64,000 nt of DNA from positions 1,682,613 through 1,746,612 of the forward strand of contig AP021856.1 in the NCBI GenBank assembly GCA_017347445.1, written 5' to 3'. Of the stretch, positions 17,153 to 52,003 are shown in pieces. The position numbers and the translations under genes were made by a program. The notes under the pieces were generated by a model that saw only the letters and a list, made by a program, of their open reading frames with translations, was not told the DNA's origin and did not search any database. The first letter of the stretch is position 1, and every line of letters begins with the position of its first letter. The stretch is from Candidatus Brocadia pituitae (GTDB lineage: Bacteria; Planctomycetota; Brocadiia; Brocadiales; Brocadiaceae).

Positions 17153-19275
17153 TTAATCTAATATGTCTTCCAGCAATCCCTCTGTCTCGCGCTCAAGGGC
17201 AAGTATATCTGCCTTAATCTCCTCCAGAGTTCGCATCGGCTCTGGTTTGTAAAAATATCGGGTAAATGATATTTCATAACCAATTTGTGTCTTTGATTCA
17301 TCAACCCATGCGTCAGGCATATAGGGAAGGACTTCACGCTTAAAAAACGGCTCAATGCCGCCATCTTCGAGCAGTGGCACTTGTTCAGTGTCACGAAGTT
17401 CAGGGTCTGGCTCATATTCGATTACACATTTCTTGCCGTTGATTTCCCTTTCATATTTGCCGTACAAGGGATTTGCCCTGATCTTGCCTGGCTTATGGAC
17501 TTTGCTGATGATTGGCTGAGCCGTTTCATCCTTGTGTCCCAGTGATGCCTGTAAGAAATTGACGCGCTGCGGCGTCAATTTCACGCTATTTTCTTTAGCA
17601 TCAGTCTCTACCGCCGTCAGAAAGGCATTGAAATCCAAATGAGGACCAGGCCCGAGTTTCTTTGCAACGCTTTCAATCACACCAATAAGCGCACCTTCTT
17701 TTTCTTTCTTGCATACCTGCCGAAAACTCCCCAAAGATGCTTCAGACAGGTCAACACGAAGACGCAGGGGACGCTCAACCGTAATCTTCCAGTATCCAAA
17801 CGCCTCGTTGGGAAGGCATTTTGATTGTTCATTTTCTACGAAAGAAATGACAAGATCGCAAATCTTCCTGATATGTTCACTCGAAAATTCGCAGTTCTTT
17901 TTGCCAAGATTTTTGCGCAAGGGGGCATACCATTTCGTGGCGTCAATGAGCTGAACCTTACCCTTGCGATGCTCCTGCTTACGATTGGTCAAGACCCAGA
18001 TATATGTGGCTATACCCGTGTTGTAAAACATGTTTTCCGGTAATGCAATAATTGCCCCAGCCAGTCGTTTTCGATAATCCATCGGCGTATATTACTTTCA
18101 CCCTGACCTGCATCACCGGTAAAAAGCGAGGAACCGTTATGCACTTCGGCAATCCGGCTGCCCAGCCGGGTCTTGTGCTTCATCTTGCTCAGCTTATTCA
18201 CCAGGAACATGAGCTGCCCATCACTGGAACGAGGGATCATCCTGAATTCCGGGTCTCCGTCATGTTCAACAATATACCGGGGATCTTTGATATCCCCTTT
18301 TCCACCCATGCGTTCAAGATCAGTCTTCCAACTCTTCCCATACGGTGGATTGGAGAGCATAAAATCAAACTCATGCGAAGGAAACGCATCGGCTGATAAT
18401 GTCGAGCCGAACTTTATGTTTTCTACAGCCTCGCCTTCGCCCTTGAGCAGGAGGTCAGCCTTGGCGATTGCGTAGGTTTCGGCATTAATTTCCTGTCCGA
18501 AAAGGTGAATAGCTACATCCTTTCCATGTGCCGTTGCCAATTCGGAGAGCGTTTCCTCAGCAACGGTCAGCATACCGCCCGTTCCACTGGCGCCGTCATA
18601 AACTAAATACGTGGTTGATTCAATCTGATCCGCAACAGGAAGAAAGATGAGATTCGCCATTAACTTTACCACGTCGCGCGGCGTGAAATGTTCGCCGGCC
18701 TCTTCGTTGTTCTCTTCACTAAATCTGCGTATGAGTTCTTCAAAGATAGTGCCCATCGCATGATTATCAAGGGCTGGCAATCTGATATTCCCGTTTGCAT
18801 CATAAACAGGATTCGGACTCAGGTTCATAGCAGTGTCGAGATACTTCTCAATAACATGTCCAAGGATATCGGCTTCTATCATAGTTGGAATCTGATTGCG
18901 GAATTTGAACTTATCAAGAATCTCTTGCACGTTTGGTGAGAAACCTTCGAGATAAGCTTCAAAGTCGGCCTTCAATTGCTGCTGTTTTGTTCGTGAACGT
19001 AAATCATGGAGGGTAAACGGTGAAGTGTTATAGAAAGCCTGGCCGGATGCCTTGCAAAGGGCCGCATGTTGATTAGAGATTCCTGCATCATCAAGTTGTC
19101 TCTTCATCCTGAGAACGGCTTCCTTTGTTGGCTCAAGAACGGCGTCAAGCCTTCGAATAACGGTCATCGGGAGGATTACATCCCGATATTTCCCCCGGAC
19201 ATAAACATCCCGAAGCACATCATCAGCAATTCCCCAAATGAAATTAACGATTGCAGTATGCTGGTTATGATTCAT
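17153..19275 (-). pseudogene. hsdM: type I restriction-modification DNA methyltransferase subunit, frameshifted
   Basis: N6-adenine methyltransferase subunit of a type I system. The 5' part has the HsdM N-terminal helical domain (MNHNQHTAIVNFIWGIADDV), SAM-binding YDGASGTGGMLTVAEE and catalytic LSNPPYGKSWK. At about 18055 the frame is lost: the first frame reads NDWLGQLLHYR, while the expected AGAIIALPENMFYNTGIATY continues in the next frame to 17153. The run GCTGGGGC is one base short of an intact reading, so a single deletion or a homopolymer error is likely. The 3' frame carries the remaining methyltransferase core and tail. No hsdR is present and hsdS is a stub, so the system is probably inactive. 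Confidence 0.85.
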
Positions 19276-35043: not shown

Positions 35044-36303
35044 ATGCCTGCGGTTTTAGAAGTAGAGGCTGTCTCAAAACGATTTCGGATTCATCATAAT
35101 CGCCCTGTTACCATGAAAGAATCCATCGTGCGGCGATTCACTGGCCGTCACGATACGGGTAGCGTCCTTTGGGCATTACATGATGTAACCTTTTCAGTAG
35201 AAAAAGGCTGTACCCTGGGCGTAATTGGCCATAATGGTGCGGGCAAAAGCACCCTGTTACGCTTACTGTGCGGGCTGGGAAGGCCTACCTCCGGACGTAT
35301 TCGCTGCAGAGGCATAATCAGTGGTTTGCTCGAGCTGGGAAGTGGGTTCCATCCCGACATGACCGGGCGTGAGAATCTTATGACCGGGGGCATTTTGAGC
35401 GGACTTACCAGACGTCAGGTTGTATCAAAGCAACAGGAGATCATTGACTTTGCCGAACTGGAAGAATTCATTGACCAACCGGTTCGTACCTACTCGAATG
35501 GTATGTATTTACGGCTTGCCTTTGCAGCGGCCATCCATTTCGATCCGGACGTCCTGGTTATTGATGAAGTATTGGCGGTTGGCGATTCCCGTTTCCGGCA
35601 GAAGTGTCTCGAACGCCTGGCTGCTTTTCGTGTATCTGGCAACACCCTGATCCTGACATCACATGATACTGCTCAGATTAGCAGTTTATGCAATGAGGTA
35701 CTGGTGCTTGAAGAAGGACGGGTGGCAATGCAGGGGGATCCGGAAGAGGCAATTCAATGCTATGATGATCTTATGCGTCAACGTACAGAAAAACGGGCTG
35801 CACAACTCTCCGGAGGAATTGCCCAAACCAGTTTTACGCCTGAACACGGAAGCCGTACCGGTACACAGGAAGCATCAGTCTGTACCGTCAATCTGTATGA
35901 TAAATATGGCAGAATTACCAACACTCTCTGTGGCGGCGATAGCCTGACGGTCGAGCTTGAATACCGCCTTGCCAAACCTTTACCTGACATGGCTTCTACG
36001 TTAGCCGTTTATGGTGAGACAAATGTCAAATGTTTTGAAACCTATGTCGCTTCGGTCAGCGCAGTCTGTGGACATTTGACTAGCCACGGTAGCTTTCGCT
36101 GTCATTTGCCGGAGTTGCCACTACTCGCCGGTCGTTATTATATTAATGTTGGTCTTTATCCCGTTGATTGGAGCTATGTTTACGATTTTCATTGGGAGAT
36201 GCATGCTTTGCAAGTGGTAAACAAGGATGAGACCCCTTCTGAGGTTTCAGGGGTGGTTTTCGTACGTCCTGTTTGGTCTTCTAAAATGACGCCAGATTTA
36301 TGA
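35044..36303 (+). CDS. polysaccharide ABC exporter ATPase with Wzt_C domain
   Basis: A 419-residue ATPase for O-antigen or similar export. Walker A is GHNGAGKSTLLRLLCG, then GLLELGSGFHPDMTGREN, signature YSNGMYLRLAFAAAIHFDPD, Walker B VLVIDEVLAVGD. From about residue 275 a separate beta-rich domain follows (TVNLYDKYGRITNTLCGGDS, then TVELEYRLAKPLPDM), the Wzt_C type that recognises the non-reducing end of the finished chain. This suggests the glycan is terminated by a capping modification; the methyltransferase domain in the cluster could supply it. It precedes the next gene by 10 bases. Confidence 0.92.
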   Translation: MPAVLEVEAVSKRFRIHHNRPVTMKESIVRRFTGRHDTGSVLWALHDVTFSVEKGCTLGVIGHNGAGKSTLLRLLCGLGRPTSGRIRCRGIISGLLELGSGFHPDMTGRENLMTGGILSGLTRRQVVSKQQEIIDFAELEEFIDQPVRTYSNGMYLRLAFAAAIHFDPDVLVIDEVLAVGDSRFRQKCLERLAAFRVSGNTLILTSHDTAQISSLCNEVLVLEEGRVAMQGDPEEAIQCYDDLMRQRTEKRAAQLSGGIAQTSFTPEHGSRTGTQEASVCTVNLYDKYGRITNTLCGGDSLTVELEYRLAKPLPDMASTLAVYGETNVKCFETYVASVSAVCGHLTSHGSFRCHLPELPLLAGRYYINVGLYPVDWSYVYDFHWEMHALQVVNKDETPSEVSGVVFVRPVWSSKMTPDL

Positions 36304-36313
36304 AAAAGGAATC

Positions 36314-38740
36314 ATGTCCCGCAAGGATGATTCGATGAAGAGCAAAAGTCGCAGTCACATGGTTATTGTAGAAGCCTACGAGGGTTTTATCGAGTATCTC
36401 TCTGACGAACCAGAGGAACGCGAATCCATGCAGGGACTTGGACTTCCGGTGGAAGAAATTGCAGAATATCTTGATTGCCGAATCACTATCCTTGGATGGG
36501 ATCAGTGGTATCGGTTTGAGCAAAGAGAGACCTGGGTACCAACACCTGCTACACGGCCCGTGTTGCAACCCGATTTTAGCAATCCGCCGTCGGCGTTTAC
36601 ATCACCAAGGTTAAAACGAATTTCAATTCCCGCAAGAGATCCTGATTACGGTCTCTTATTTAACGAAAAGGGTTTGAGTCCACGATCTTACGGGCTTATT
36701 AATGACAGCGGTTTGTTATTTTTTGCTTCCTATTGTCTGAACAAGGAACTCCAGGCATTTTATAAAAAAGACCCCTTTCATATTGCCATCATGCCCATGT
36801 GGGGCGGCGTCGGGTATGTTGCACAGATGGCAAGGGCAACCCAGGTTCCCGATACTGTAAACGTTCCTTTTGTGGTTGTGGTTACGGATAAATCTATCAA
36901 CCGCCAGTTAGCCAACCAGGAGGGAGTTTGGACCAGGCATGCGATCATACGCCGTCAGATGGAAGACGTCTCACTTGCCTTAGCTGATATGTCTCTGGTT
37001 TTCGGACCGAGGGGGAAGGAGATTGCTGATGCAGGCAGGTTGCCCGGTGCTTCTGCTCCGGTTTGTGTGCCCCGTCGTATCGGAAATTCCCTACTCGATA
37101 AAATTGCTCGTGTATCGGAAACGCCCGCTGGTATTCAAATGCCTCTGCAATTCTTCCTCTACGAGCCTCAACAGGCATCATCAGGTGTGCTGACTGCCCT
37201 GGATGCCGTTACTCTTTTAGCAGGTCAGGGAATCTATTTAAAACGGCCGATGATCAGCGCCGGTACGTCGATGACCTTTGCTCCTATGAAACCGCGGGAG
37301 TTTCCTGAATACTGGTCGTCTCGTGGAGCCGTACGCGAACTTATCCGGGAACACCAATGGGAATGGAGGAAGGATTATCCACGACTTGAACAGGTCTTTC
37401 CTGTTCGTCTTTACCCCAGTTTCTTTGATCATCTCCCAAATATCTGGGCAGAGCTCGCCCGTGGCTCCCTGGTACTTCTCTCTCCGGCAGCCGCAGAAGG
37501 GTTGGCGCCGGGAGAAATTCTTCCCCGGGAGGTTTTGATTCAGGGAGACCCATTGCCAGAGAACGTGGCAGATTGTCTGAAAAAAATTGCGGGAACAGAT
37601 ATCACAAAATTGGATCAAATCAGACGGGAATTGTGTTTGCGGGTTTTAGAGGCACACCGGGAAAATCGACGAAACATCCTTGTCGGGGAAGTCAAGGAAG
37701 CCCTTGAACAGATGCTTTACTTCCGTCCCAAACCGCAAGATCTATCACGGATTGCTCTGATATTTCTCGACCGCCGCATGCCCCTTCGGACGCTTGTGCA
37801 GAAGGACGAGCCACCTTCCCTGTCAGCGTTACGGCCTGGTGCAAGAAAAGGGATGCTCTCCGTTGTCGTAACGTGCTATGAAATGGGTGTTATGATTAAG
37901 GAATCTGTGGAAAGTGTTTGGGCTTCAGAGCGTCAGCCTGGCGAGGTGTTGCTCGTCGATGATGGTTCATACGGGGAAGAAACCCTTGGGAGAATCAAGG
38001 AACTCGAACAATATGCATCTGAAAAAGGACTTCCTCTAAAAATTATTCGACAACGAAACCAGGGGTTGGCTTCGGCCAGAAATACTGGCCTAAAGGCAGC
38101 AAATGGAGAGTTCATCTCCTTCCTTGATGGTGACGATATCATAGAGCCTCAATTTTATCAGATTGCCCTGAAAATTCTGGAAGGACATCCGCGTTTAGGT
38201 GGAGTTGCTGCATGGGCATGTATCTTTGGTGCGAACATTGTTGATGGCTTTTGGAATGCCCCACAACCAGAATTTCCATTCCTGTTCATTGAGAATAGCA
38301 TAATTGTCCCCTGTGTAACACGTACGGAACTCATAAGAAGTCTTGGTGGTTATGACGCACGCCAGCGATATAACTATGAAGACTGGGAATTAGGCATTCG
38401 AATGCTCGCATCTGGTTGGCCGATTGTAACCGTTCCCATGCATCTTTTAAAGTACCGCGTCCGCAGTGATTCACTCTACCGAAGCATGACCGATGTACAG
38501 AATCAGGTCATGCGGGAATTGTTATTCAATACCCATCGGGAAACCGTTTCTAAATTTGCCATTGAAGTTGCCATGCAACTAGAGAATCAATGGAAGACTA
38601 TTGCTTATTCCAATTCAATTTCACCGCTGCCTGATCAACACCACAATAGAGACGCTTCTTTTCATAAGATACTTTTAAAAACAACCAAGAGGCTTCTTAC
38701 GTGGTTATCCAGCACCGGAAATGATATAAATCTCGTATGA
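36314..38740 (+). CDS. two-domain glycosyltransferase with C-terminal GT2
   Basis: An 808-residue cytoplasmic protein. Residues 1 to about 510 resemble a GT4-like GT-B fold, with FHIAIMPMWGGVGYVAQMAR and LADMSLVFGPRGKEIADAGR, but the usual donor-binding E-x7-E is not clear. Residues about 515-740 form a GT2 (GT-A) domain: LSVVVTCYEMGVMIKESVES, VLLVDDGSYGEET, NQGLASARNTGLKAANGEFI and the metal-binding FLDGDD, with ED in NYEDWELGIRM as likely base. The ATG at 36314 has AAGGA upstream. The last 4 bases overlap the next gene. Confidence 0.82.
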   Translation: MSRKDDSMKSKSRSHMVIVEAYEGFIEYLSDEPEERESMQGLGLPVEEIAEYLDCRITILGWDQWYRFEQRETWVPTPATRPVLQPDFSNPPSAFTSPRLKRISIPARDPDYGLLFNEKGLSPRSYGLINDSGLLFFASYCLNKELQAFYKKDPFHIAIMPMWGGVGYVAQMARATQVPDTVNVPFVVVVTDKSINRQLANQEGVWTRHAIIRRQMEDVSLALADMSLVFGPRGKEIADAGRLPGASAPVCVPRRIGNSLLDKIARVSETPAGIQMPLQFFLYEPQQASSGVLTALDAVTLLAGQGIYLKRPMISAGTSMTFAPMKPREFPEYWSSRGAVRELIREHQWEWRKDYPRLEQVFPVRLYPSFFDHLPNIWAELARGSLVLLSPAAAEGLAPGEILPREVLIQGDPLPENVADCLKKIAGTDITKLDQIRRELCLRVLEAHRENRRNILVGEVKEALEQMLYFRPKPQDLSRIALIFLDRRMPLRTLVQKDEPPSLSALRPGARKGMLSVVVTCYEMGVMIKESVESVWASERQPGEVLLVDDGSYGEETLGRIKELEQYASEKGLPLKIIRQRNQGLASARNTGLKAANGEFISFLDGDDIIEPQFYQIALKILEGHPRLGGVAAWACIFGANIVDGFWNAPQPEFPFLFIENSIIVPCVTRTELIRSLGGYDARQRYNYEDWELGIRMLASGWPIVTVPMHLLKYRVRSDSLYRSMTDVQNQVMRELLFNTHRETVSKFAIEVAMQLENQWKTIAYSNSISPLPDQHHNRDASFHKILLKTTKRLLTWLSSTGNDINLV

Positions 38741-40998
38741 AACACTTGATTATCTGTCGTGAATATCCTCCCGCCCCGGGCGGAGGTATAGGAACATATG
38801 TAGCCCATATCACTCGGCTGCTTGCCGAAAGCGGGGAGACCGTCCATGTAATTGGTCAGCTTTGGGAAGGAGCTGAAAAGAAAGTTGAGGAAAAATATCA
38901 TGGAAGGCTGATTATTCATCGTATCCATTTTAAAGATTGGCCAGCATTTATAAGCAGAAAATCCGGTTCCACTACTAAGTCCAAAGAGGAACTAGGTCTT
39001 TTGGAATCGAGTTTTCCACCTCAATATTTTTCCTGGGCGGCTTGTCACCTTGCAGAACGACTTATCGAGGAGGAAGAAATCGACGTAATTGAAGCCCAGG
39101 AATATGAGGCACCGCTGTATTACCTCCAGCTTAGACGCGTCCTTGGGTTTGGACCAAAAAGATGTCCTCCCTGCATCGTTCACCTTCATTCCCCAACCGA
39201 GTTTATAGCACAACACAATGATTGGGATATTTGTGTGCCAGATACACTGACGGCAAAACGACTCGAGGATTATAGTATTACTACTGCCGATGCGCTACTT
39301 TGTCCTAGCAGATATCTTGCACGTCAAGTAGAAACGCATTATGGATTAAAAGAAGGTATTGTTTCTGTTATTCCGTATCCAATGGGTGACACTCCTCTCC
39401 TCGAAAGGGACAAGCATACATGGGAACAGGGAACAATCTGTTATATAGGACGACTTGAAAGGCGAAAGGGAATAATAGAATGGATTGACGCTGCAGTTGC
39501 CGTTGCAAGCAATTATCCGCTGGCGCATTTTGAATTCGTAGGTGCTAATATTCTTGGCACCGAAGAAATGAGCGGTGAGGAATTTGTAAAACGCCGCATT
39601 CCTGATGATTTAATGCTAAGGTTTCACTTCCGTGGACAACAGAACCGTTCGTCCCTTTTGCAGTTCCTTGCAGGTGCCCGTATAGCAGTTGTTCCATCAC
39701 GTTGGGAAAATCTTCCCAATACCTGCATTGAGGCAATGAGCTCTGGTCTGCCCGTCCTTGCAACAGCCGAGGGTGGGATGCCAGAGATGGTCATGGACAA
39801 TCGAACCGGTTGGATCGCTGCCAATGCGAGTGTCGATGAACTAATCAAGGCTCTGCGGCGCGCACTTGATACACCACCGGTGAAAATTGCCGAAATGGGT
39901 CGTTGTGCATCATCGGATATCAAACGAATATGCGACAACAGGAAAATTGTAGAAAGTCATTTAGATTTCCGTAGTCAGGTTGTTAACAAAGGGGCAAAGC
40001 ACTCGGTACACTTTCCATTGAATTTACCATGGAACAAAAGGTCACTTTCAAGCAGCTTAACACGCCACACATCACAAAGCAAAGGCAAGACAGGAATTGC
40101 CTTTGTGGTTACTTGTTACAACACCGGGCAATTTCTTGAGGCTTGCTTGCGGAGTATCGAACAACAGACGAAGCAACCAGCTATCGTGATTATCGTAGAT
40201 GACAAATCAACGGAAGGACAGACATTAAAAGTTCTCCGTAAAGTACAGCAGGATGGATGGCAGGTTATTCATAAAAAAAATGGAGACCTCATACCCGCTA
40301 AGAATACAGGAATGAATACTATCCTTTGTTCTCAACCAGATATCCTTGGTTTTGTTTTTCTCAAGGCAGAGGATCGGTTGAACCACGGTTTTGTTGCTGC
40401 ATGTGAATCGGTCCTCCAGCAATGTCCCGAAGTTGGTCTTGTCTCCTGCTGGACTCAACATTATGGAACTGATAACAAAATATGGATCAAGCCCTGTCCA
40501 GGCTTTCCTTATCAATGGCTGACAAACGAGGCTGCTCCTTTCAGCGTTGTACGGGCCGATGCATTCCCTGAGGCCGGTTACTTTCGATCTGGGCTGAGTG
40601 AAGGATATGATGTTTGGGACCTTTTTAATGCCGTTATGGTTGCAGGATGGGTTGCTGTGACCATACCGGCGATACTGGGCAAGCAACGGGTCTGGAATAA
40701 TCAGTTGTCATGTATTACAAAATCGCGGTTCTCTGGAAAGATGCAAAGGAACCTTCTTGAAAGATTTCCGGAGATCATCACGAGAGATGCCAAGGACATC
40801 GTGTTCCTTTCACAGCCTAATTTTGAATACTCACTATGGGAAGAGGCTTTTACAATCCAAAAACATCTCAAGATATCACAAAAAGTACTCCACCTCCCTG
40901 TCGGAAATGGCTTATGGATACTGAAAAGGATAAAGAATAAAATACTTTGGTACGCACCTGGCTGGATGGCCAGATTGATTTCCCGTGTAACTAATTGA
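38737..40998 (+). CDS. GT4-GT2 fused glycosyltransferase
   Basis: A 753-residue bifunctional enzyme. Residues 1 to about 410 are a GT4 family GT-B protein: REYPPAPGGGIGTYVAHITR, YIGRLERRKGIIEWIDAAVA and the donor-binding region VPSRWENLPNTCIEAMSSGL with PVLATAEGGMPEMV. Residues about 450-690 are a GT2-like domain (IAFVVTCYNTGQFLEACLRS, IIVDDKSTEG, KNTGMNTILC), but the usual DxD is replaced by KAEDRLNHG, so this half may be weak or inactive. It starts inside the preceding gene (ATGA overlap). Confidence 0.85.
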   Translation: MKHLIICREYPPAPGGGIGTYVAHITRLLAESGETVHVIGQLWEGAEKKVEEKYHGRLIIHRIHFKDWPAFISRKSGSTTKSKEELGLLESSFPPQYFSWAACHLAERLIEEEEIDVIEAQEYEAPLYYLQLRRVLGFGPKRCPPCIVHLHSPTEFIAQHNDWDICVPDTLTAKRLEDYSITTADALLCPSRYLARQVETHYGLKEGIVSVIPYPMGDTPLLERDKHTWEQGTICYIGRLERRKGIIEWIDAAVAVASNYPLAHFEFVGANILGTEEMSGEEFVKRRIPDDLMLRFHFRGQQNRSSLLQFLAGARIAVVPSRWENLPNTCIEAMSSGLPVLATAEGGMPEMVMDNRTGWIAANASVDELIKALRRALDTPPVKIAEMGRCASSDIKRICDNRKIVESHLDFRSQVVNKGAKHSVHFPLNLPWNKRSLSSSLTRHTSQSKGKTGIAFVVTCYNTGQFLEACLRSIEQQTKQPAIVIIVDDKSTEGQTLKVLRKVQQDGWQVIHKKNGDLIPAKNTGMNTILCSQPDILGFVFLKAEDRLNHGFVAACESVLQQCPEVGLVSCWTQHYGTDNKIWIKPCPGFPYQWLTNEAAPFSVVRADAFPEAGYFRSGLSEGYDVWDLFNAVMVAGWVAVTIPAILGKQRVWNNQLSCITKSRFSGKMQRNLLERFPEIITRDAKDIVFLSQPNFEYSLWEEAFTIQKHLKISQKVLHLPVGNGLWILKRIKNKILWYAPGWMARLISRVTN

Positions 40999-41015
40999 TG
41001 TAAAACTTTATATTT

Positions 41016-41951
41016 ATGAATATCCTCATATCGGCTATCATTTGCACGCATAATCGCGCTCGGTACCTAATCAAAGCAATTCAAAGTCTGATAGATCAGT
41101 GCATACCCAAAGAAGACTATGAGATCATAATAGTAGATAACTGTTCAACGGACTTCACGAAGGAAGTGGTTGAACAATATTCTTACAGGGTTAATATAAA
41201 ATATTTTTACGAACCAGCGTTGGGGCTTTCATTTGCGCGGAATACCGGCTGGCGCAATGCAAAAGGAAAATACATTGCTTACCTTGATGATGATGCCATT
41301 GCTTGCCCAGGCTGGCTCAACAAAATTTTAGAAGTGTTTGAAACAGTAAGGCCTAGACCTGGGTGTACAGGAGGAAAGGTAATGCCAATATGGGAGACAT
41401 CCAGACCAAAATGGCTGTCGGATTGGCTTTTACACGGTCTTACTATTATCGATTGGTCAGATACTCCTCATGTCTTGCCTAATCTTTCCGAAGAATGGCT
41501 TGTTGGAGCCAATATTGCTTTTCCTGCAGATATTCTCAAAAGGGCCAATGGATTTACTCCAAGCCTTGATCGGGTGGGGAATAATCTCCTGTCAAGTGGC
41601 GACGTATTTCTTGAAAAGCAAATTGTTAAAATGGGATACTCGTGCTTTTATCATCCGGACATTGCTATCGGACATCACATATTCGCATCGCGACTTAATC
41701 AGAAATGGTTCATTCGCAGATATTACTGGCAGGGTGTGTCTGATGCAGTGATGCAGATACTCCAGGAAAGACCCGCAACAGTGCAAAGATTTCGCTATGT
41801 TATATCAAAGGTAAAAATCTTTATAAAATCTCCAAAAAAGATACAACGTCTCATATTGGCAACAGATGATCCGGAACAGTTTACACAAAAGTGTTTTGAT
41901 TTGATAGCATTGGGACATATATACGGCTTGTTAAGAATTGCCAAACTATGA
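41016..41951 (+). CDS. GT2 family glycosyltransferase
   Basis: A 311-residue enzyme of the GT-A fold. SAIICTHNRARYLIKAIQSL starts the domain, IIIVDNCSTDFT follows, then LSFARNTGWRNAKGKYIAYL with DDDA as the metal site. The second half has the acceptor-site region EEWLVGANIAFPADILKRAN and GDVFLEKQIVKMGYS. It is plainly more A/T-rich than the genes upstream, as are the next two, which may mark a later-acquired part of the cluster. ATGA overlap with the next gene suggests translational coupling. Confidence 0.9.
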   Translation: MNILISAIICTHNRARYLIKAIQSLIDQCIPKEDYEIIIVDNCSTDFTKEVVEQYSYRVNIKYFYEPALGLSFARNTGWRNAKGKYIAYLDDDAIACPGWLNKILEVFETVRPRPGCTGGKVMPIWETSRPKWLSDWLLHGLTIIDWSDTPHVLPNLSEEWLVGANIAFPADILKRANGFTPSLDRVGNNLLSSGDVFLEKQIVKMGYSCFYHPDIAIGHHIFASRLNQKWFIRRYYWQGVSDAVMQILQERPATVQRFRYVISKVKIFIKSPKKIQRLILATDDPEQFTQKCFDLIALGHIYGLLRIAKL

Positions 41952-43018
41952 GTTTAAATATTCATATAATCAGAACCCGCCGTCCTCATTGGGGTAAATT
42001 CTCTGGTATAAATCAGTTTTTGAAATATATTGATCATAACAAATACCATATGAATATTTATGTTGCTTCAGACAATGATGATGACTTTCCAATAAAAAAC
42101 ATCATAGTGCAAAGGTGGTTACGCAGTATAGTTCAACGGAATGGCATGCAATATTACAAACTGAGCGATCTCACTGCTGAAATTAAAATATTTCGTAAAT
42201 GCCTATGGAATAAAATTGACGTAATACATTTTATGGATGGTGAACACTCAGCTCAGTATTTGCCGTGGTTATGTAAACTTCCACAAAAAGTCCGGCCTAA
42301 AATTGTCGCCACGTATCATCAACCTCCGGAATTATTAGATTCGCTTATTATGAAGGATATTATTCTAAGACTTGACTGCATTACCTTAGTATCACCGGAG
42401 CAGGTATCATATTTTAAAAAATTCATAGCACCTGAGAAGATACATCTAATCTTACACGGTATAGACACTAACTTCTTTAAACCAGGAGGTGTTTCTAAAG
42501 AAAAAGACAAGTTTAAATGTATTACGGTAGGCCACTGGCTGCGCGATTTTAAGGCTATACGAGAAGTGGCAGAGAAATTGACATCGTATAAAAATATTGA
42601 ATTTCATGTTGTAACCTCTAATTTAACAGGGCCTAAAGTTACCGGATTGGAAGGTTCTACAAATATCGTGCTTTACAGGAATACTATTGATGATACGAGA
42701 TTATTAGAACTCTATCAGCAATCAGATATACTTTTTCTGCCATTATTGCAGTCCACCGCGAATAATGCACTCCTTGAAGGTATTGCCTGTGGGTTGCCTG
42801 TAATATCCACGTATTTGCCGTCAGTGAAGGCATACCTGCCGGGCAGGGAAGCAATTTTAATAAAAGACAATGAACCGGAAAAACTAGTAGAAGCAATATT
42901 ACATTTAGCTCATAGTCCTGAAGATTGTAAGGACTTGTCGTTTAAAGCGCGTAAAAGGGCGGAGGAGCTTGATTGGCGGAATATTACCCCACAATACGAG
43001 GGAGTTTATTCTAAGTAA
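41948..43018 (+). CDS. GT4 family glycosyltransferase
   Basis: A 356-residue GT-B enzyme. The N-terminal acceptor half includes RRPHWGKFSGINQFLKYIDH, the hinge LILHGIDTNFFKPGGV, and the donor half ITVGHWLRDFKAIREVAEKL, then LYQQSDILFLPLLQSTANNA, LLEGIACGLPVISTYLPSVK. The glutamate of the E-x7-E motif is present in LLEGIACG. The first four bases overlap the end of the GT2 gene. Confidence 0.9.
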   Translation: MSLNIHIIRTRRPHWGKFSGINQFLKYIDHNKYHMNIYVASDNDDDFPIKNIIVQRWLRSIVQRNGMQYYKLSDLTAEIKIFRKCLWNKIDVIHFMDGEHSAQYLPWLCKLPQKVRPKIVATYHQPPELLDSLIMKDIILRLDCITLVSPEQVSYFKKFIAPEKIHLILHGIDTNFFKPGGVSKEKDKFKCITVGHWLRDFKAIREVAEKLTSYKNIEFHVVTSNLTGPKVTGLEGSTNIVLYRNTIDDTRLLELYQQSDILFLPLLQSTANNALLEGIACGLPVISTYLPSVKAYLPGREAILIKDNEPEKLVEAILHLAHSPEDCKDLSFKARKRAEELDWRNITPQYEGVYSK

Positions 43019-43073: not shown

Positions 43074-44144
43074 ATGTCAAAAAACGAGCGGTTGTTTTGT
43101 TCCAAGCCATTTACATGGTTTGAGATAACCCAAGTAAATGGAATTGGAGAAGTATATATGTGTTGCCCATCGTGGTTAGAGACGCCCATAGGAAACCTTA
43201 GATTCCAATCTGTCATGGAGATATGGAATGGTAAAAAAGCACAGGAAATCAGACATTCGATTCTAGATGGATCCTTCAGCTATTGCAATCGTTCCAGATG
43301 CCCTTTTTTACACACCATGTCGGGGCCGGTTGAGAAGGTTGAAGATGTTACAGATGAAGATTTTAAATTAATAATCAATAAAGAACTTACTATCTTGTCA
43401 TTTGGACCAAAAGAAATTAATTGCTGCTATGATAAATCTTGCAATTTGTCCTGTCCATCATGCCGTACAGAGGTGATTATCGAAAGGAAAAACAGGAAGC
43501 AGATACTGGGAGTACAAAATAAAATTTGTAAAGAAGCACTTAAAGACGCTCAACTTTTATATATCACGGGTTCAGGAGATCCTTTCGGTAGCCCTTTTTT
43601 TAGAAAATGGCTACAAACCATGAAGAAACGAGATATACCCCGGCTTAAGAAGTTACATATCCATACAAATGCGCTATTATGGACACCAAAAATGTGGAAA
43701 ACGATACCAGATGAAATTCAACAAATTGTGAAAACTGCTGAAATATCAATTGACGCAGCAAGCTCAGAAACATACTCTATGAACCGACGTGGTGGATGTT
43801 TTGAAACACTATTAGAAAACCTTGAATTTATCAGCACATTACATGAAAGTATTCCTATGGACTGGGTTGGTATAAGCATGGTAGTTCAGGAAAATAATTT
43901 TAGAGAAATGCCTGATTTTGTACGGCTCGGCAAGCGATTTGGTTTTGGCGTCTATTTCAGCAAATTAGTGGACTGGGGTACCTATTCAGCAGGGGAATTT
44001 TACCGTAGGGCAGTTCATCTTCCTCACCATCCAAGACAGTCAGAGCTTATTGGCTTACTGAAGGACGATATTTTTAATGATCCAATTGTCTGCTTGGGAA
44101 ATTTAACTGAAATGGTACGTGACGAAAACTGTGAGCAAACATAG
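43074..44144 (+). CDS. radical SAM protein with an N-terminal SPASM-like segment
   Basis: A 356-residue protein with two Cys clusters in unusual order. The first, near residues 9-80 (FCSKPF, MCCPSW, SYCNRSRCPF), together with IGNLRFQSVMEIWNGKKAQE, looks like the SPASM auxiliary-cluster domain normally found at the C terminus. The second, CNLSCPSCR (about residues 124-131), is the CxxxCxxC that binds the catalytic 4Fe-4S cluster and SAM. A TIM-barrel-like remainder contains LLYITGSGDPFGSPFFRKWL and AEISIDAASSETY. It lies among glycosyltransferases, so modification of a sugar or a small molecule of the glycan is inferred. Confidence 0.8.
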   Translation: MSKNERLFCSKPFTWFEITQVNGIGEVYMCCPSWLETPIGNLRFQSVMEIWNGKKAQEIRHSILDGSFSYCNRSRCPFLHTMSGPVEKVEDVTDEDFKLIINKELTILSFGPKEINCCYDKSCNLSCPSCRTEVIIERKNRKQILGVQNKICKEALKDAQLLYITGSGDPFGSPFFRKWLQTMKKRDIPRLKKLHIHTNALLWTPKMWKTIPDEIQQIVKTAEISIDAASSETYSMNRRGGCFETLLENLEFISTLHESIPMDWVGISMVVQENNFREMPDFVRLGKRFGFGVYFSKLVDWGTYSAGEFYRRAVHLPHHPRQSELIGLLKDDIFNDPIVCLGNLTEMVRDENCEQT

Positions 44145-44227: not shown

Positions 44228-47200
44228 ATGAATATATCTATTATTATACCAGCCCATAATGCAGCTGGCACACTAGGTGAGACGCTTGAGTCTATCCTCA
44301 AACAGACCTTCCAGAATTGGGAGGCAATCGTTGTAGACAATGGTTCAAATGATGGAACGCAAGCGGTTGCTTCAGCTTTTGCTGAAAAAGATCATAGGAT
44401 ACGGATGGTAAGTGAACCGCAGAAGGGTGTAAGCATGGCACGCAACATGGGTATCAAAGCAGCACGATTCGAATGGCTGCTTTTTCTTGACGCCGACGAT
44501 TGGATAGTGTCACAGCATCTGGAACGGATGACGAATGTACTTGCAGCAAACCCTAATCTTGATGGCGTACATTGTGGCTGGATTAATATTGCTCCTGATG
44601 GAAGTCAATTCTGTGACGGCTCCTGCAAGGAGGAAGGGGACCTGTTTAATTCATTTGTAAGCACCTGCCTCTTTGCGATTCATGCCTGTATTATCCGTCG
44701 ATCGGTCGTTATGTCAGTTGGGGGCTTTGATACGTCACTCGTCACCTGTGAGGACTGGGATCTCTGGCAACGAATAGCCCGCACAGGTGTGAATTTTGGT
44801 GCAGTTCACGAAGCGCTTTCATTCTATCGTATGCGACAAGGTTCCGCTTCGCGGAATGGCTTTCAGCTATTTATAGACGGTCTTCGCGTAATCGAACGAG
44901 GACATTCGTCTGATCCACGTGTACCTAATCCGCGTCCAGAAAACGCGAATGGTCTGCCGGTAACACAGCTTCCAACTGCCAGGTTCAATTTTATGTGCTG
45001 GTGTGCTGGTCTCTTTATTGGAACCGGCATGGATGCCAGGCCCTTGCTCAATACCAATAACAATATTCAAGACGTAATCATTGATCCGGAAACCATCGCT
45101 AATAATATCTTCAATTCCGCGTTAATCCATGCGTGTCAAACAAAAAATGCTTGCAGTAAGTTCTGGCCTGGCATTGAGCCATCCGTTAAAGAATTTTTAT
45201 TCGCTCTCGAGAAACAGTCACAGATAATTGGGCTGGCTCATCGCACAATGTCTATGATATATGCACTACAACACGCGCCTTTTAATAATTCTTCTCCATC
45301 GTACGCGATACACGTTGAAATCACAAAACCTATTCATGATATAATGACGCCGGAAAATATAGAGCGGGTCAATTGCAATATCGAACTCGAGGGCACATTT
45401 CTTGGAAACATAGTATTGCCTGTTTATGATAAAGTGCTTCCACGGTATATATTGACAGATGCTATTGCGGAAAGATTTGCATGGCAAATCCTGGGCAGAC
45501 ACCTTGAACATTCGGTATATCCGGGTTTAAATATCGTACGAGAAAAAAATGGTTTTTCGATTTGGAGAAAAAACCGGCGTCTAACAAAAACTATTACCAA
45601 TGAGAATGCGCAAACTATTAAACAAAAAATGCACGACGAGATTGGCTGGATAGTGTTCTTGCAAGAAATTTGTGGGTGTCATAACTGGACTTTTCAAAGT
45701 TTCTATGCTCCTAATTGGAAGGTATTCTTAAAAGCAACAGGCTGGAAAGTGTTTTTGCAGGAATTTATGAAGTGCAAGATTACGACTATAATGGGTTTTC
45801 TTATTAAGGCGAAAAACGGAAAATATATCGTAGATGATGGTGGTTTTACTTTAGATATTAGTGATGAATTTACGGATATAAAGGTTTTAAGTGAAAAATT
45901 AGATCTACTGATAACAGTAGGCGGAGTACCGATCGGTGTGGTAACTATACCGGTTCATCGAAATGTTGTGCGCGCTCTTGAACTACGTTATGCTATTGTA
46001 AAAGCGAGTGGTTATGAATTATGTCGTGCTGCCGTTCGCGAAGGGTTGCTTGGCAAACCATTAACAGATAAACCACTATCACTTCGGGACCGTCTAAAAG
46101 CTGCAAAGGTATCATTACTCCAAGGTAATAAAGATACCACATTTTCAAAAACACATATAGAATTCAAATTTACTCCAGAAATAGATTGTATTCTCAATTA
46201 CATGTTATATCCAAAAGATGCATGCATAATACTTGGACGTCGCCTGCATAAAGAGTTAGGAACCAGCGTTTCACGACGTGCAATGCTTCCTCCTTCCCTT
46301 TCAAGTGAGCTTATAAATGCCGCTCGGGTTACTGGTGAGCCTGTATTTATATCCCTATCTCAGGACGAACAGCCAAAGCATATAATGTATATGCCAGAAG
46401 TGGTTTGTCATCCATTGCAGGAAAAACAGTCGTCTACCACGGCAGTAAGTAATAATACAACAACGCAAGAAGACAAATTAGTATCAAGTGGTCAGGAATA
46501 CTTTAATAATTATTTTGCAGAAAAAGAGGATCCCTGGAATTACACCAGCGCCTACGAACAGAAGAAATACGAGCAAACACTGGCGATGCTTCCGCGCCTT
46601 CGGATTAGAAATGCTTTAGAGATTGCCTGTGCTGAAGGTCATTTTACGATGCAACTTGCACCTCGTGTTGATAGCCTTATTGCTGCTGATATTTCACAGA
46701 TAGCAGTTGACCGTGCTGCAAAGCGTTGCAAGAATACAAAAAATATCCGCTTTCAGCAGCTTGATCTGGTGCGTGACCCACTCCCAGGAATCTTTGAGTT
46801 AATTGTTTGCAGTGAGGTGCTTTATTATGTTGGTGAATATGATACCCTGAAGATTGTTGCGCACAAACTTGTAGATGCTCTTCAGCCTAAAGGATACCTC
46901 TTAATGGCAAATGCAAATGTCCTTGTAGACGATCCCGATCATACAGGTTTTGACTGGGAAGTTCCTTTCGGAATTGAGACCATTAGCAAAACATTCGTAG
47001 GAATCCGTGATATTCGGCTTGTAAAGGAAATCAGGACGCCACTCTACCGTATTCAGCTTTTCCAAAAACGCACTCGTATGCGCAGGCCATTTTGTCACAA
47101 TACACCGGAAATTATTAATTTAAAGTATCAACCAACACCAATTGAGCCAAATGTTGCAGCGTATGTGAGATGGCGCAGTGGTGGTCATCCACATAGCAGC

Positions 47201-47938
47201 ATCGACAAGAATGCAGTTACCCGTCGGCTGCCGATTCTTATGTACCACCGTGTAGCCCCAACTGGCTCAGCATCAACCGCCCGATATCGCATAACTCCTG
47301 AACAATTTGAAGAACAGCTTCGTTACTTGCGGAATGAAGGATATTATAGTATCAATCTTGAGGACTGGTTTTATGCAATGAAAAGAAAAATGCCGTTGCC
47401 TGGGAAAGCGGTGATACTTACATTTGACGATGGTTATCTCGATTTTAAGACATACGCCTGGCAACTTTTGAAACAATATGGTTTTCTGGCCACTGTTTTT
47501 CTTGTGACGGATAATATTGGAAACTCGAATAGCTGGGATAGTGCATATGGAGAAGAACTGCCACTGCTTGGATGGGAAGATGTCCGACAACTTCAGAGTG
47601 AAGGAGTTGAATTTGGTTCTCATACAGCAAGCCACCCCTATCTTACGTCGCTTTCACCGGAGGAAATTGTCCGTGAAGGGGTACTCTCCAGGGCTGCACT
47701 CAGTTGTGAACTTGGAAAAACAGTGAAGACATTTGCATATCCTTATGGTGATGTTGATGAATTTGTTCAGCGTCTAATCGGGGCATGTGGTTATACTTTT
47801 GGATTATCCTGCAATCATGATTTGTGCGGTTTCCATGATCCTCTTTTAGCACTGCCACGGATTGAAGTGCTCAACTCCGATGATCTCCAAAATTTCGTTG
47901 TAAAGCTTGGGGCCAGTCCGGCACACATTCATAGTTAG
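44228..47938 (+). CDS. GT2 - duplicated unknown domain - NodS-like methyltransferase - NodB-like deacetylase fusion
   Basis: A protein of 1236 residues from the ATG at 44228 (GGAAAG upstream; a GTG at 44192 is less likely). Residues 1 to about 290 form a GT2 domain (NISIIIPAHNAAGTLGETLE, VDNGSNDGTQ, LFLDADDW). Residues about 370-680 hold two related blocks: ELEGTFLGNIVLPVYDKVLP with YILTDAIAERFAW, and TVGGVPIGVVTIPVHRNVVR with ALELRYAIVKASG. From about 755, a NodS-type SAM methyltransferase follows (YFAEKEDPWNYTSAYEQKKY, ALEIACAEGHFTMQLAPRVD). From about 1000, a polysaccharide deacetylase has LPILMYHRVAP, ILTFDDGYLDF and EFGSHTASHPYL. It would transfer, methylate and deacetylate sugars in one chain. 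Confidence 0.88.
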   Translation: MNISIIIPAHNAAGTLGETLESILKQTFQNWEAIVVDNGSNDGTQAVASAFAEKDHRIRMVSEPQKGVSMARNMGIKAARFEWLLFLDADDWIVSQHLERMTNVLAANPNLDGVHCGWINIAPDGSQFCDGSCKEEGDLFNSFVSTCLFAIHACIIRRSVVMSVGGFDTSLVTCEDWDLWQRIARTGVNFGAVHEALSFYRMRQGSASRNGFQLFIDGLRVIERGHSSDPRVPNPRPENANGLPVTQLPTARFNFMCWCAGLFIGTGMDARPLLNTNNNIQDVIIDPETIANNIFNSALIHACQTKNACSKFWPGIEPSVKEFLFALEKQSQIIGLAHRTMSMIYALQHAPFNNSSPSYAIHVEITKPIHDIMTPENIERVNCNIELEGTFLGNIVLPVYDKVLPRYILTDAIAERFAWQILGRHLEHSVYPGLNIVREKNGFSIWRKNRRLTKTITNENAQTIKQKMHDEIGWIVFLQEICGCHNWTFQSFYAPNWKVFLKATGWKVFLQEFMKCKITTIMGFLIKAKNGKYIVDDGGFTLDISDEFTDIKVLSEKLDLLITVGGVPIGVVTIPVHRNVVRALELRYAIVKASGYELCRAAVREGLLGKPLTDKPLSLRDRLKAAKVSLLQGNKDTTFSKTHIEFKFTPEIDCILNYMLYPKDACIILGRRLHKELGTSVSRRAMLPPSLSSELINAARVTGEPVFISLSQDEQPKHIMYMPEVVCHPLQEKQSSTTAVSNNTTTQEDKLVSSGQEYFNNYFAEKEDPWNYTSAYEQKKYEQTLAMLPRLRIRNALEIACAEGHFTMQLAPRVDSLIAADISQIAVDRAAKRCKNTKNIRFQQLDLVRDPLPGIFELIVCSEVLYYVGEYDTLKIVAHKLVDALQPKGYLLMANANVLVDDPDHTGFDWEVPFGIETISKTFVGIRDIRLVKEIRTPLYRIQLFQKRTRMRRPFCHNTPEIINLKYQPTPIEPNVAAYVRWRSGGHPHSSIDKNAVTRRLPILMYHRVAPTGSASTARYRITPEQFEEQLRYLRNEGYYSINLEDWFYAMKRKMPLPGKAVILTFDDGYLDFKTYAWQLLKQYGFLATVFLVTDNIGNSNSWDSAYGEELPLLGWEDVRQLQSEGVEFGSHTASHPYLTSLSPEEIVREGVLSRAALSCELGKTVKTFAYPYGDVDEFVQRLIGACGYTFGLSCNHDLCGFHDPLLALPRIEVLNSDDLQNFVVKLGASPAHIHS

Positions 47939-48125
47939 TTGTGCTTGATTTTCTCAGTGAAATGAAATCAAGCCATAATCTATGAATAACGCCCCTTGTT
48001 GTTGGTGTGGTAAGGATGATCGTTTGAGATTAACTTTGCTATGGAATTTTACCCCGATCAAAATACACCAGTGTTTAATTTACGATTATACTCAAGATGT
48101 TCAAAAAAGGTGGATTTTACATTGT

Positions 48126-48300
48126 TAACAGGGTGGCACGGACAAACTCCGTTTGTCCGTGTTGGATTTGCATGACATTGTTTACGAAGTATTCATTTTG
48201 CCATGTGGATGGACAATACAAGGCAGACCGTGCAAGCACAAGGAAGTAAGCAGTGATGCAAAAACACGGACAAGCATAGCTTGTCCATGCCACCCCGTTA
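48126..48300. mobile_element. TA-flanked MITE with 20-bp terminal inverted repeats
   Basis: The ends TAACAGGGTGGCACGGACAA and, mirrored, TAACGGGGTGGCATGGACAA differ at two positions. Each end includes TA, which fits TA target duplication by an IS630/Tc1-type transposase. The left arm continues in a small palindrome (CGGACAAACTCCGTTTGTCCG interrupted by one base pair). There is no ORF inside. An IS630-family transposase is present at 62065 but its ends do not clearly match. Confidence 0.65.
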
Positions 48301-48570
48301 GATTATGACGATCCGGTATCAAGTTTGTAAATCACAAATTGTGAGCCTCTTGAGTATAGTCAGCCCTACTGTTATCACAAATATGTTGTCTCACATATAA
48401 TAAAACTACCACATTTGTCGCGATTTTTTTATCACAGTTCCCACCTATTTTTACATAAGTCATTTATTTAAACAATTGTTTTATGCCGTCGTGGTAAAGA
48501 TGTCGCATATTTGTGCATTCATAGAATAAGAACCTAGAAAAATCAAGGGTTTTAAAGGCAGTTTTTTCTT

Positions 48571-50164: not shown

Positions 50165-52003
50165 ATGAATTATAAACCTTACGCTATCTCCTGGAATACC
50201 ACTTACCGGTGTAACCTGCGCTGCAGTCATTGCTATCTCGATACCAATGCGTTAACCAAACAATCTGCCAAAGAACTCAGCACACAAGAGGGATTGCGGC
50301 TCATAGACCAGATGGCCGAACTTAACCCCAATCTGCTTCTCATCCTTACCGGCGGAGAACCTTTATTACGAAAGGATATCTATGAACTGGCCTCGTACGC
50401 TTCTCAAAAGGGAATGATGGTGGTTTTGGGGACAAACGGCAACCTGATCGACGATGATATTGCTAAGAAACTCAAGGAAAGCGGGGTGACAGGGATAGGT
50501 ATTAGCCTTGACTCCATTGCGCCGGACAAACATGATAAATTCAGGGGAATTCCCCGTGCCTGGGACGAAACCATGAACGGGATTGAGGCATGCCGCCGGC
50601 AAGGCATCGAATTTCAAATACAGACGACGGTCACCCGGGATAATTTCTATGAAATCCCCGATATTATTGACTTCTCTTATAACGTTGGCGCAAAGGTCTT
50701 TAACCTGTTTTTTCTGATATGTACGGGCAAAGGACAGGACCTCACGGATATTACACCGCAGCAATACGATCAGGCGTTGCATCAACTCTATGAGATTCAA
50801 AAAAAATATCAGGGAAGGATGATGGTGGGGGCGAAGTGCGCACCGCACTATCGAAGAATTGTCTATGAACACGATACCGCATCTCCCCTCATCCGCGCTT
50901 ATGCGGGGGGCTGCCCGGCTGGCACTCATTACTGCAGGATTACGCCGGAAGGGGACGTTACGCCGTGTCCTTACATGCCCAATGTTTCCGGGAATGTAAG
51001 AGAGAAGACCTTTGGAGAAATCTGGAATGGTTCTGAAAATATACAGGCCTTGCGGGATGCCCATCTCCAGGGCAGGTGTGGTGTGTGTGAATTCCAATAT
51101 ATCTGCAAGGGATGCCGCGCACGTGCATTGGCGGCCACGGGAAATCAGATGGACGAGGACGCATGGTGCGATTATGTCCCCGGAAAATATGGCAACAAGG
51201 TAATCAAATTGGAAACTGCAGAGACCTTTGGTATCGAAGAAAGTTTTACGATGCCCTGGAGTAATGACGCAAAGGGCATTCTGAAACAGATCCCGTCTTT
51301 CGGGCGAGGTATGGTTATTAAAGGGGTGGAACGTTTTGCCGCAAAAAATGATTATCGTGAAATTACCCTGGAAATCATGAGGGCTGCCCGTGAGGCGATG
51401 GTGTCGGACAGAAAGACGGCATTTCCTATGAACAATGATGAAATCCCATGGACTGAGGAGGCCCGGAAAAGAGTGGCAAATGCCCCGGACTTTGTGCGGC
51501 CTGGTATTTACAAGCTGATGCAGAAAAAGGCGAGGCAGCACGGTTACCAGGAGATAACTTCAAAATTTCTTTCTGAAATACGGGATGAATCGATGCAGCT
51601 TGCCTCGAAACGCATCAGGAATATTGGCTTTGATGAACTCAGAATGGATGCGTGGGACGAGGCTAAGGAAAAGCTGAAGAATGCACGGAAAAAAGAGGTT
51701 ATTGATAAGATTAAGACATTCCTTGATGAACGGACGGTTAAAAACGAGGGGATCATTACGAAATTTCAAGCATACCTGAAAACTGCAGGCGGGGAGGAAA
51801 AAAAAGAAAGACCGGCAATACCGGTATGGACAGAGGAGGCAAAACAACGGCTCGAAAAAGCGCCGATATTCGTCAGGGGCAGGGCGAAGAAGTCGATTGA
51901 AGATTTTGCTGTTCAGAAAGGCCTTGCCGAAATAACCCCTGAACTGATGAACCAATATATGCAAAACATCCCTTCGTTTGTAAAAAAGAAATTTATGGCA
52001 TAG
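50165..52003 (+). CDS. radical SAM/SPASM protein with PCP_red-like repeats
   Basis: A 612-residue protein. The radical SAM core starts YRCNLRCSHCYLDTNAL (CxxxCxxC near residues 16-23) with GGEPLLRKDIYE and LGTNGNLI. The SPASM domain (about 255-340) has CPAGTHYC, DVTPCPYMPN and CGVCEFQYICKGCRARAL. The last 250 residues contain three copies of a segment like the PCP_red domain of light-independent protochlorophyllide reductase: PWSNDAKGILKQIPSFGRGM; PWTEEARKRVANAPDFVRPG; WTEEAKQRLEKAPIFVRGRA, each followed by a conserved helix ending in an EIT motif. The core is related to heme-d1/heme-b maturases (NirJ/AhbD type). A role in tetrapyrrole or peptide modification is possible; none is proven. Confidence 0.85.
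   Translation: MNYKPYAISWNTTYRCNLRCSHCYLDTNALTKQSAKELSTQEGLRLIDQMAELNPNLLLILTGGEPLLRKDIYELASYASQKGMMVVLGTNGNLIDDDIAKKLKESGVTGIGISLDSIAPDKHDKFRGIPRAWDETMNGIEACRRQGIEFQIQTTVTRDNFYEIPDIIDFSYNVGAKVFNLFFLICTGKGQDLTDITPQQYDQALHQLYEIQKKYQGRMMVGAKCAPHYRRIVYEHDTASPLIRAYAGGCPAGTHYCRITPEGDVTPCPYMPNVSGNVREKTFGEIWNGSENIQALRDAHLQGRCGVCEFQYICKGCRARALAATGNQMDEDAWCDYVPGKYGNKVIKLETAETFGIEESFTMPWSNDAKGILKQIPSFGRGMVIKGVERFAAKNDYREITLEIMRAAREAMVSDRKTAFPMNNDEIPWTEEARKRVANAPDFVRPGIYKLMQKKARQHGYQEITSKFLSEIRDESMQLASKRIRNIGFDELRMDAWDEAKEKLKNARKKEVIDKIKTFLDERTVKNEGIITKFQAYLKTAGGEEKKERPAIPVWTEEAKQRLEKAPIFVRGRAKKSIEDFAVQKGLAEITPELMNQYMQNIPSFVKKKFMA

What the first reader, a model, noticed from the sequence alone, without database searches (positions are those of the whole stretch)
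44228..47938. Single-chain GT2 - duplicated unknown domain - NodS - NodB enzyme
A GT2 transferase, a NodS-type methyltransferase (EDPWNYTSAYEQKKY) and a NodB-type deacetylase (TFDDGY, SHTASH) are fused, recalling NodC-NodS-NodB of Nod-factor synthesis. This would give N-deacetylated, N-methylated amino sugars in a polysaccharide. Together with a Wzt with a cap-recognising domain it suggests methylation-based termination. The bridge consists of two diverged copies of a domain I cannot name (residues about 370-680).
Basis: partly seen in the sequence, partly recalled or inferred. Interest (0 to 1): 0.75.

Follow-up and report, generated by a model that had tools for sequence, protein, structure and literature searches.

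The report
Fused sugar-adding, deacetylating, methylating enzyme
One long anammox-bacterium protein joins three sugar-modifying enzymes through two copies of an unnamed domain; the fusion is already named in databases but uncharacterised, and its linker domain is a widespread, unstudied building block of bacterial surface-sugar factories.

Summary
Window 44228-47938 (+) encodes one intact 1236-residue protein: GT2 glycosyltransferase, a ~380-residue bridge, NodS-type methyltransferase, NodB/CE4 deacetylase. Motifs of all three enzymes are intact and every part is under purifying selection. The bridge holds two diverged copies of a ~72-residue domain (profile-profile E 1.2e-8). It matches no Pfam, NCBIfam or solved-structure family; one copy alone is modelled confidently (pLDDT 91). 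The architecture is not new: RefSeq already calls it 'trifunctional glycosyltransferase/class I SAM-dependent methyltransferase/polysaccharide deacetylase', and it occurs in cyanobacteria, Chloroflexota, Verrucomicrobiota, Ignavibacteriota and Alphaproteobacteria. I found no paper on it. New here: the bridge domain is mobile. It also precedes other GT2s and joins sulfotransferase or another methyltransferase to the deacetylase, mostly beside Wzm-Wzt exporters. Fusions with the NodS-type methyltransferase always keep the deacetylase metal site (17 of 17); it was lost twice, independently, where glycosyltransferase and NodS-type methyltransferase are both absent. Best reading: a cytoplasmic enzyme adds a HexNAc, removes its acetyl and N-methylates the amine before export. 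The GT2 is not NodC-like. N-methylation is inferred; termination is untested.

The parts
44228..47938 (+). whole fusion gene, GT2 - bridge - NodS-type methyltransferase - CE4 deacetylase, 1236 aa
   Evidence: relatives; dN/dS 0.15-0.27 in all four parts against Ca. B. carolinensis
44228..45247 (+). GT2 module with its C-terminal extension (aa 1-340); DAD at 88-90, EDW at 175-177
   Evidence: Pfam; motif conservation; solved-structure relatives
45296..45514 (+). bridge domain copy 1 (aa 357-429)
   Evidence: HMM and profile-profile; predicted alone at mean pLDDT 91
45515..45811 (+). inter-copy segment (aa 430-528) with the conserved GWxxFLQEIxG element
   Evidence: alignments A2/A3; bridge model
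45812..46060 (+). bridge domain copy 2 (aa 529-611), ends in GYELCRAAVREGLL
   Evidence: bridge model
46061..46432 (+). third bridge segment (aa 612-735), LGRR...GTSxSRRAxLP element, less confident model
46505..47182 (+). NodS-type class I SAM methyltransferase module (aa 760-985)
   Evidence: PF05401; NodS structure 3ofj E 1.8e-17; motifs conserved
47201..47917 (+). NodB/CE4 deacetylase module (aa 992-1230)
   Evidence: PF01522; 6dq3 1.5e-25, PgaB 3vus 1.2e-12
47420..47434 (+). CE4 motif 1 TFDDG (base D1067, metal ligand D1068)
   Evidence: motif roles PMC6415152
47618..47635 (+). CE4 motif 2 SHTASH (metal ligands H1132, H1136)
   Evidence: motif roles PMC6415152
34237..35001 (+). Wzm-type ABC permease of the same gene run
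   Evidence: frame; named by homology to ABC-2 polysaccharide exporters and by the following Wzt; homologues beside bridge proteins
35044..36303 (+). Wzt ATPase with Wzt_C (putative cap-binding) domain
   Evidence: PF14524 1.7e-14
36314..43018 (+). four glycosyltransferase genes (808, 753, 311, 356 aa) that travel with the fusion
43074..44144 (+). radical SAM/SPASM protein immediately upstream, conserved in anammox and Nitrospinae loci

Best explanation
A cytoplasmic glycan-assembly enzyme of an ABC-transporter (Wzm-Wzt) surface-polysaccharide operon. The GT2 module adds an N-acetylhexosamine to the lipid-linked acceptor; the CE4 module removes its N-acetyl group; the NodS-type module methylates the freed amine; the product is then exported by Wzm-Wzt. 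The two bridge domains are non-catalytic modules that hold the catalytic parts together and probably contact the shared glycan acceptor. Shown: the modules, their intact motifs, purifying selection, the duplication, and the pairing of the NodS-type module with a metal-competent deacetylase. Inferred: the sugar, the order of reactions, N- rather than O-methylation, and what the bridge binds.
For: Domains and intact motifs. All 17 examined proteins with the NodS-type module (window included) keep DD and HxxxH in the deacetylase; the metal site is lost in the two lineages that lack both the GT2 and the NodS-type module (7 Oscillatoriales sulfotransferase fusions, TFDGG with SMSATY/H or similar; 2 Brocadia MT23 fusions, TFDNG), two separate events on the tree. 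No long hydrophobic segment of membrane-helix kind and no signal peptide seen, so cytoplasmic. Wzm at E<1e-30 within the held DNA in 13 of 23 relatives. In Nod-factor synthesis NodB deacetylates the non-reducing end and NodS is the N-methyltransferase (PMC6415152). The bridge is kept whatever the first enzyme is.
Against: No biochemistry and no glycan structure from this organism. The NodS-type module is far below the NodS equivalog cut-off (87 of 300 bits) and could be an O-methyltransferase. A live deacetylase also goes with the GT2 module, including three loci without the NodS-type module (L037-L039), so the pairing may reflect GT2 plus deacetylase rather than methylation. Only two independent losses. 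The published anammox glycan (Kuenenia) has methylated HexNAc read as O-methyl, and among 38 relatives searched the full or partial fusion was found only in the window's genus and one Scalindua.
Confidence: 0.55

Rival explanations
1. [quoted passage not shown] (A special case of the main reading, not exclusive of it.)
For: Wzt_C in the same operon; caps in ABC-type pathways are methyl, (methyl)phosphate or Kdo and are read by the Wzt domain (PMC9445017); in relatives modifying enzymes are fused to the exporter itself (Wzt-sulfotransferase; apparent methyltransferase-Wzm).
Against: Klebsiella O4/O7-type terminators carry a coiled-coil ruler (PMC11231755); the longest bridge helix is about 24 residues. 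The NodS-type module is missing in relatives that keep the operon. No Wzt_C structure relative was found by sequence.
Confidence: 0.25
2. Internal decorator: each repeat unit receives the modified sugar, with no role in chain length. (Also compatible with the main reading.)
For: Non-processive GT2 type; module make-up varies between related loci (GT-BR-MT-DAC, GT-BR-DAC, GT alone) while the other glycosyltransferases stay.
Against: Not distinguishable from sequence; Wzt_C suggests a cap-dependent pathway.
Confidence: 0.35
3. The NodS-type module is an O-methyltransferase and merely co-resides with a deacetylase.
For: The NodS-like family is broader than NodS (4isc, annotated only as methyltransferase); anammox S-layer glycan methyls were read as O-methyl (PMC5088730).
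Against: The NodS-type module never occurs with a metal-less deacetylase (0 of 17), whereas other modules do.
Confidence: 0.25
4. The bridge is itself an unrecognised enzyme rather than a scaffold or binding module.
For: Several polar residues are nearly invariant (R31, D62, Q130, E248, C250, R255 in bridge numbering).
Against: Single copies occur in front of other GT2s and lack most of these residues; no convincing fold match to an enzyme.
Confidence: 0.12

Closest known systems
RefSeq 'trifunctional glycosyltransferase/class I SAM-dependent methyltransferase/polysaccharide deacetylase' (e.g. WP_013334356.1, Gloeothece)
   Same: same four parts in the same order, 45.5% identity over 99%
   Different: only an annotation name: no paper in the library holds 'trifunctional glycosyltransferase'; the alphaproteobacterial members have a shorter bridge, with one detectable repeat copy in Sulfitobacter and none detected in the others
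NodC-NodB-NodS of Nod-factor synthesis
   Same: CE4 deacetylase and NodS-type methyltransferase families
   Different: GT2 lacks QxxRW and membrane helices, so not NodC-like; one chain; NodS equivalog score not reached
Multi-module polymerases/terminators of ABC-dependent O antigens (WbdD; Klebsiella O4, O7)
   Same: catalytic modules variably distributed in single and multi-module proteins (PMC11231755); Wzt with carbohydrate-binding domain (PMC9445017)
   Different: no kinase and no long coiled coil seen; deacetylase present; bridge domain unmatched
PgaB/IcaB poly-GlcNAc deacetylases
   Same: closest named CE4 relatives by NCBIfam and among the best by solved structure
   Different: PgaB and IcaB are extracytoplasmic (established knowledge); here the domain sits in a fusion without signal peptide

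Membership tests
RefSeq trifunctional GT/MT/deacetylase | GT2, class I MT and polysaccharide deacetylase on one chain, in that order | tested here: met
CE4 deacetylase (NodB homology) | Pfam PF01522 above cut-off | tested here: met
   96.4 bits against 23.1
CE4 deacetylase (NodB homology) | TFDD base and metal Asp, H(S/T)xxH zinc ligands | tested here: met
   D1067, D1068, H1132, H1136
NodS methyltransferase | Pfam PF05401 above cut-off | tested here: met
   78.2 bits against 24
NodS methyltransferase | NCBIfam equivalog NF041650 cut-off | tested here: not met
   87 bits against 300
NodS methyltransferase | N-methylates a deacetylated chitooligosaccharide | not testable with these tools
   needs biochemistry; indirect support only
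NodC chitin oligosaccharide synthase | processive GT2 with QxxRW and membrane helices | tested here: not met
   motif absent; best hydrophobic windows of the chain are 1.9 (inside bridge copy 2) and 1.57 (inside the GT2 domain), none a clear membrane helix
WbdD-like chain terminator | methyltransferase (with or without kinase) plus long coiled-coil ruler | tested here: inconclusive
   no long helix in the bridge model; other parts not modelled
PgaB deacetylase | NCBIfam equivalog TIGR03938 cut-off | tested here: not met
   94.1 bits against 321.9
Known domain family for the bridge | match in Pfam, NCBIfam or solved structures | tested here: inconclusive
   no family at E up to 10 for the window bridge; no solved structure by sequence; Foldseek best E 0.34 and 0.24; VIA best Z 5.2 and 4.2

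The most novel reading that the evidence does not exclude
The bridge repeat is an unnamed, mobile domain of bacterial glycan-assembly enzymes, possibly a new small fold, that docks catalytic modules onto a common lipid-linked glycan acceptor. Around it, lineages swap the first enzyme (glycosyltransferase, sulfotransferase, methyltransferase) and can keep the deacetylase as a metal-free, presumably sugar-binding pseudoenzyme. The live version makes N-methylated amino sugars in anammox and cyanobacterial surface polysaccharides.
Probability: 0.35. Interest if true: 0.7.

Novelty: new variant of a known kind. Interest (0 to 1): 0.5.

Why it matters
It turns an automatic database label into a testable mechanism and exposes an unannotated domain family, found here in eight bacterial phyla, in surface-glycan loci. 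If the N-methyl amino sugar is real, it would be an unusual cationic sugar on anammox and cyanobacterial surfaces, relevant to granule and biofilm formation. The pseudo-deacetylase fusions give a natural test of whether the modules work as an assembly line or a scaffold.

Tried and rejected
BLASTP between the two copies sees nothing; only profiles do. tblastn of one 67-aa repeat against plasmids: no match; with the GT2 attached, homologues reaching into the repeat appear, but the plasmid hits in Actinomycetota and Rhizobium are weak by HMM (E about 6e-4 and 4.5e-4). Viral contigs: no bridge. Solved structures by sequence: none for the bridge or for Wzt_C. Fold searches of the bridge and of one repeat: no convincing match; best rows are unrelated nucleic-acid proteins (Sau3AI, LeuRS, dsRBD-like) with Z below 6. 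I do not claim a new fold. Literature: nothing on the fusion; the Kuenenia S-layer glycan paper concerns another genus, and I do not attribute its methyl groups to this enzyme. DNA tandem repeats: none. Rejected: sequencing artefact (83% and 51-54% full-length relatives), NodC homologue (no QxxRW). Docking between different proteins through the bridge domain is not required here, since this genome has no other detectable copy.

Full report
WHAT IS THERE. From ATG 44228 to the stop at 47938 one frame encodes 1236 aa. Pfam places a GT2 domain at aa 4-110 (4-218 with PF10111), a NodS domain at 766-896 and a CE4 polysaccharide deacetylase at 1056-1191, all above curated cut-offs. The middle (about 355-735) has no match in Pfam or NCBIfam even at E 10, and none among solved structures by sequence. 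The gene ends a run Wzm - Wzt (with Wzt_C) - four glycosyltransferase genes - radical SAM.

THE DUPLICATION. Direct BLASTP of the two copies gives nothing. With 25 rows of homologous bridges aligned (A3), profile-profile comparison of aa 357-429 with 529-611 gives probability 94.8%, E 1.2e-8, 71 columns; the segment between and the segment after give no signal. AlphaFold2 models the bridge at mean pLDDT 81, pTM 0.84, with the same strand-strand-strand-helix pattern in both copies, and one copy alone, with 22 rows, at pLDDT 91. So each copy looks like an autonomous domain. Foldseek and VIA-align found no convincing relative, which does not prove a new fold.

THE FUSION IS ALREADY NAMED. RefSeq calls the Gloeothece relative (45.5% over 99%) 'trifunctional glycosyltransferase/class I SAM-dependent methyltransferase/polysaccharide deacetylase'; the Sulfitobacter and Rhizobium members carry the same name. 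No paper in the library holds the phrase 'trifunctional glycosyltransferase'. Full GT-bridge-MT-DAC proteins also occur in Westiellopsis, Nodosilinea and another cyanobacterium, Chloroflexi, Haloferula, Chthoniobacterales and Ignavibacteriales. In an even draw of 149 Planctomycetota genomes the repeat was found in only four, all of the window's own genus or family; Scalindua (L031/L038) adds one from the wider order.

THE BRIDGE IS MOBILE. The same bridge joins other partners: sulfotransferase-bridge-DAC in seven Oscillatoriales-type cyanobacteria; an unrelated Methyltransf_23-bridge-DAC in two Brocadia genomes; GT-bridge-DAC without methyltransferase in Scalindua; GT-bridge alone or with a separate DAC gene in an Anaerolineaceae bacterium, Nitrospinae and planctomycete H5. 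Single copies of the repeat lie in front of other GT2 domains, sometimes twice in one protein (L034 5732-8485; L052 3-2801; L061; L060). 13 of 23 loci have Wzm homologues at E below 1e-30 in the held DNA. The domain is thus a component of glycan-assembly proteins, with support in Planctomycetota, Nitrospinota, Cyanobacteriota, Chloroflexota, Verrucomicrobiota, Ignavibacteriota, Deinococcota and Pseudomonadota; Actinomycetota is weak (E about 2e-4 to 6e-4).

A TEST OF THE CHEMISTRY. If the NodS-type module methylates the amine that the deacetylase frees, it should need a live deacetylase. I read the CE4 metal ligands across 29 deacetylase domains. All 17 proteins with a NodS-type module, window included, have D, D, H, H. 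The three deacetylases that go with a GT2-bridge but no NodS-type module (L037, L038, L039; in L037 and L039 the deacetylase is a separate, overlapping gene) are intact too. The nine proteins in which both the GT2 and the NodS-type module are absent have lost at least one ligand: TFDGG with SMSATY/H or similar in the sulfotransferase fusions, TFDNG in the Brocadia methyltransferase-23 fusions. The tree shows two separate losses. These metal-less domains are still under purifying selection (dN/dS 0.13-0.20 in most pairs; one close pair, L049/L050, gives an unreliable 0.66 with dS 0.03), like the live one (0.15). So deacetylation goes with the GT2/NodS-type chemistry, and the dead domain keeps another role, perhaps sugar binding. 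Caveats: two events only, and GT2 presence is confounded with a live site.

NOT NODC. The GT2 module has DAD and EDW motifs conserved in most relatives, no QxxRW, and no clear membrane helix; named relatives are TuaG/EpsD-type and chondroitin/heparosan synthase modules. The analogy with Nod-factor synthesis therefore holds for NodB and NodS only. NodB deacetylates the non-reducing end and NodS is the N-methyltransferase of that pathway (PMC6415152).

MECHANISM. Most likely (0.55): in the cytoplasm the GT2 adds HexNAc to a lipid-linked glycan, the CE4 module frees the amine, the NodS-type module methylates it, and Wzm-Wzt exports the product. Whether this is a cap read by Wzt_C (0.25) or an internal decoration (0.35) cannot be told from sequence; these two are special cases of the main reading, so the numbers overlap. 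Caps in such pathways are methyl, (methyl)phosphate or Kdo groups read by the Wzt carbohydrate-binding domain (PMC9445017); the Klebsiella terminators carry a coiled-coil ruler (PMC11231755), for which the bridge model shows no long helix.

VARIABLE SLOT. In anammox and relatives the genes GT808, GT753, GT311, GT4 and the radical SAM protein are conserved (about 57-80%) while the slot of the fusion varies: two separate methyltransferase genes follow the Scalindua fusion that lacks the NodS-type module; a sulfotransferase and a DUF6473 gene sit beside two others. A cyanobacterium (L044) has the same order without the radical SAM gene at 55-64% identity, which suggests horizontal transfer of the whole cassette.

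VERDICT. Observation confirmed; interpretation partly supported; the architecture is a known but uncharacterised annotation class; the unnamed mobile bridge domain and the twice-lost deacetylase site are the new content. Interest 0.5.

Noticed in passing
window 48120-48310: A ~190-bp element with inverted ends (GGGTGGCACGGACAA...TTGTCCATGCCACCCC) just after the fusion gene; roughly 35 near-full-length or partial copies at 73-93% identity across the genome, MITE-like.
   Followed up: partly
L046:3952-6054 (similar-length Wzt frames in L049, L050, L052-L055, L058): Cyanobacterial Wzt carries Wzt_C and then a sulfotransferase domain on the same chain (tested in L046 only), suggesting a sulfated cap or coupled modification and export.
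   Followed up: partly
L042:9274-11160 and L047:9524-11002: In Chloroflexi the frame of Wzm begins with a ~300-aa methyltransferase-like part (FkbM-like by eye): an apparent methyltransferase-permease fusion. L057:7714-10890 has a long multi-membrane N-terminal part before Wzm. Frames were read stop to stop and not tested against Pfam.
   Followed up: no
window 36314-38740: 808-aa protein: GT2 only at aa 516-630; the N-terminal ~500 aa have no Pfam match yet the protein is conserved at 63-78% in anammox and a cyanobacterium.
   Followed up: no
window 50165-52003: Radical SAM/SPASM protein followed by three protochlorophyllide-reductase 57 kD subunit (PCP_red) domains.
   Followed up: no
L044 (cyanobacterium FACHB-471) and L037 (Nitrospinae): Same glycosyltransferase cassette as the window, 55-79% identical, in unrelated phyla: likely horizontal transfer.
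   Followed up: partly
L034:5732-8485, L052:3-2801: About 920-aa proteins with the order bridge repeat - GT2 - bridge repeat - GT2.
   Followed up: partly
window 17153-19275 (- strand): Type I restriction methylase-like sequence in two overlapping frames (18010-19275 and 17153-18082), as if frame-shifted (named by eye).
   Followed up: no
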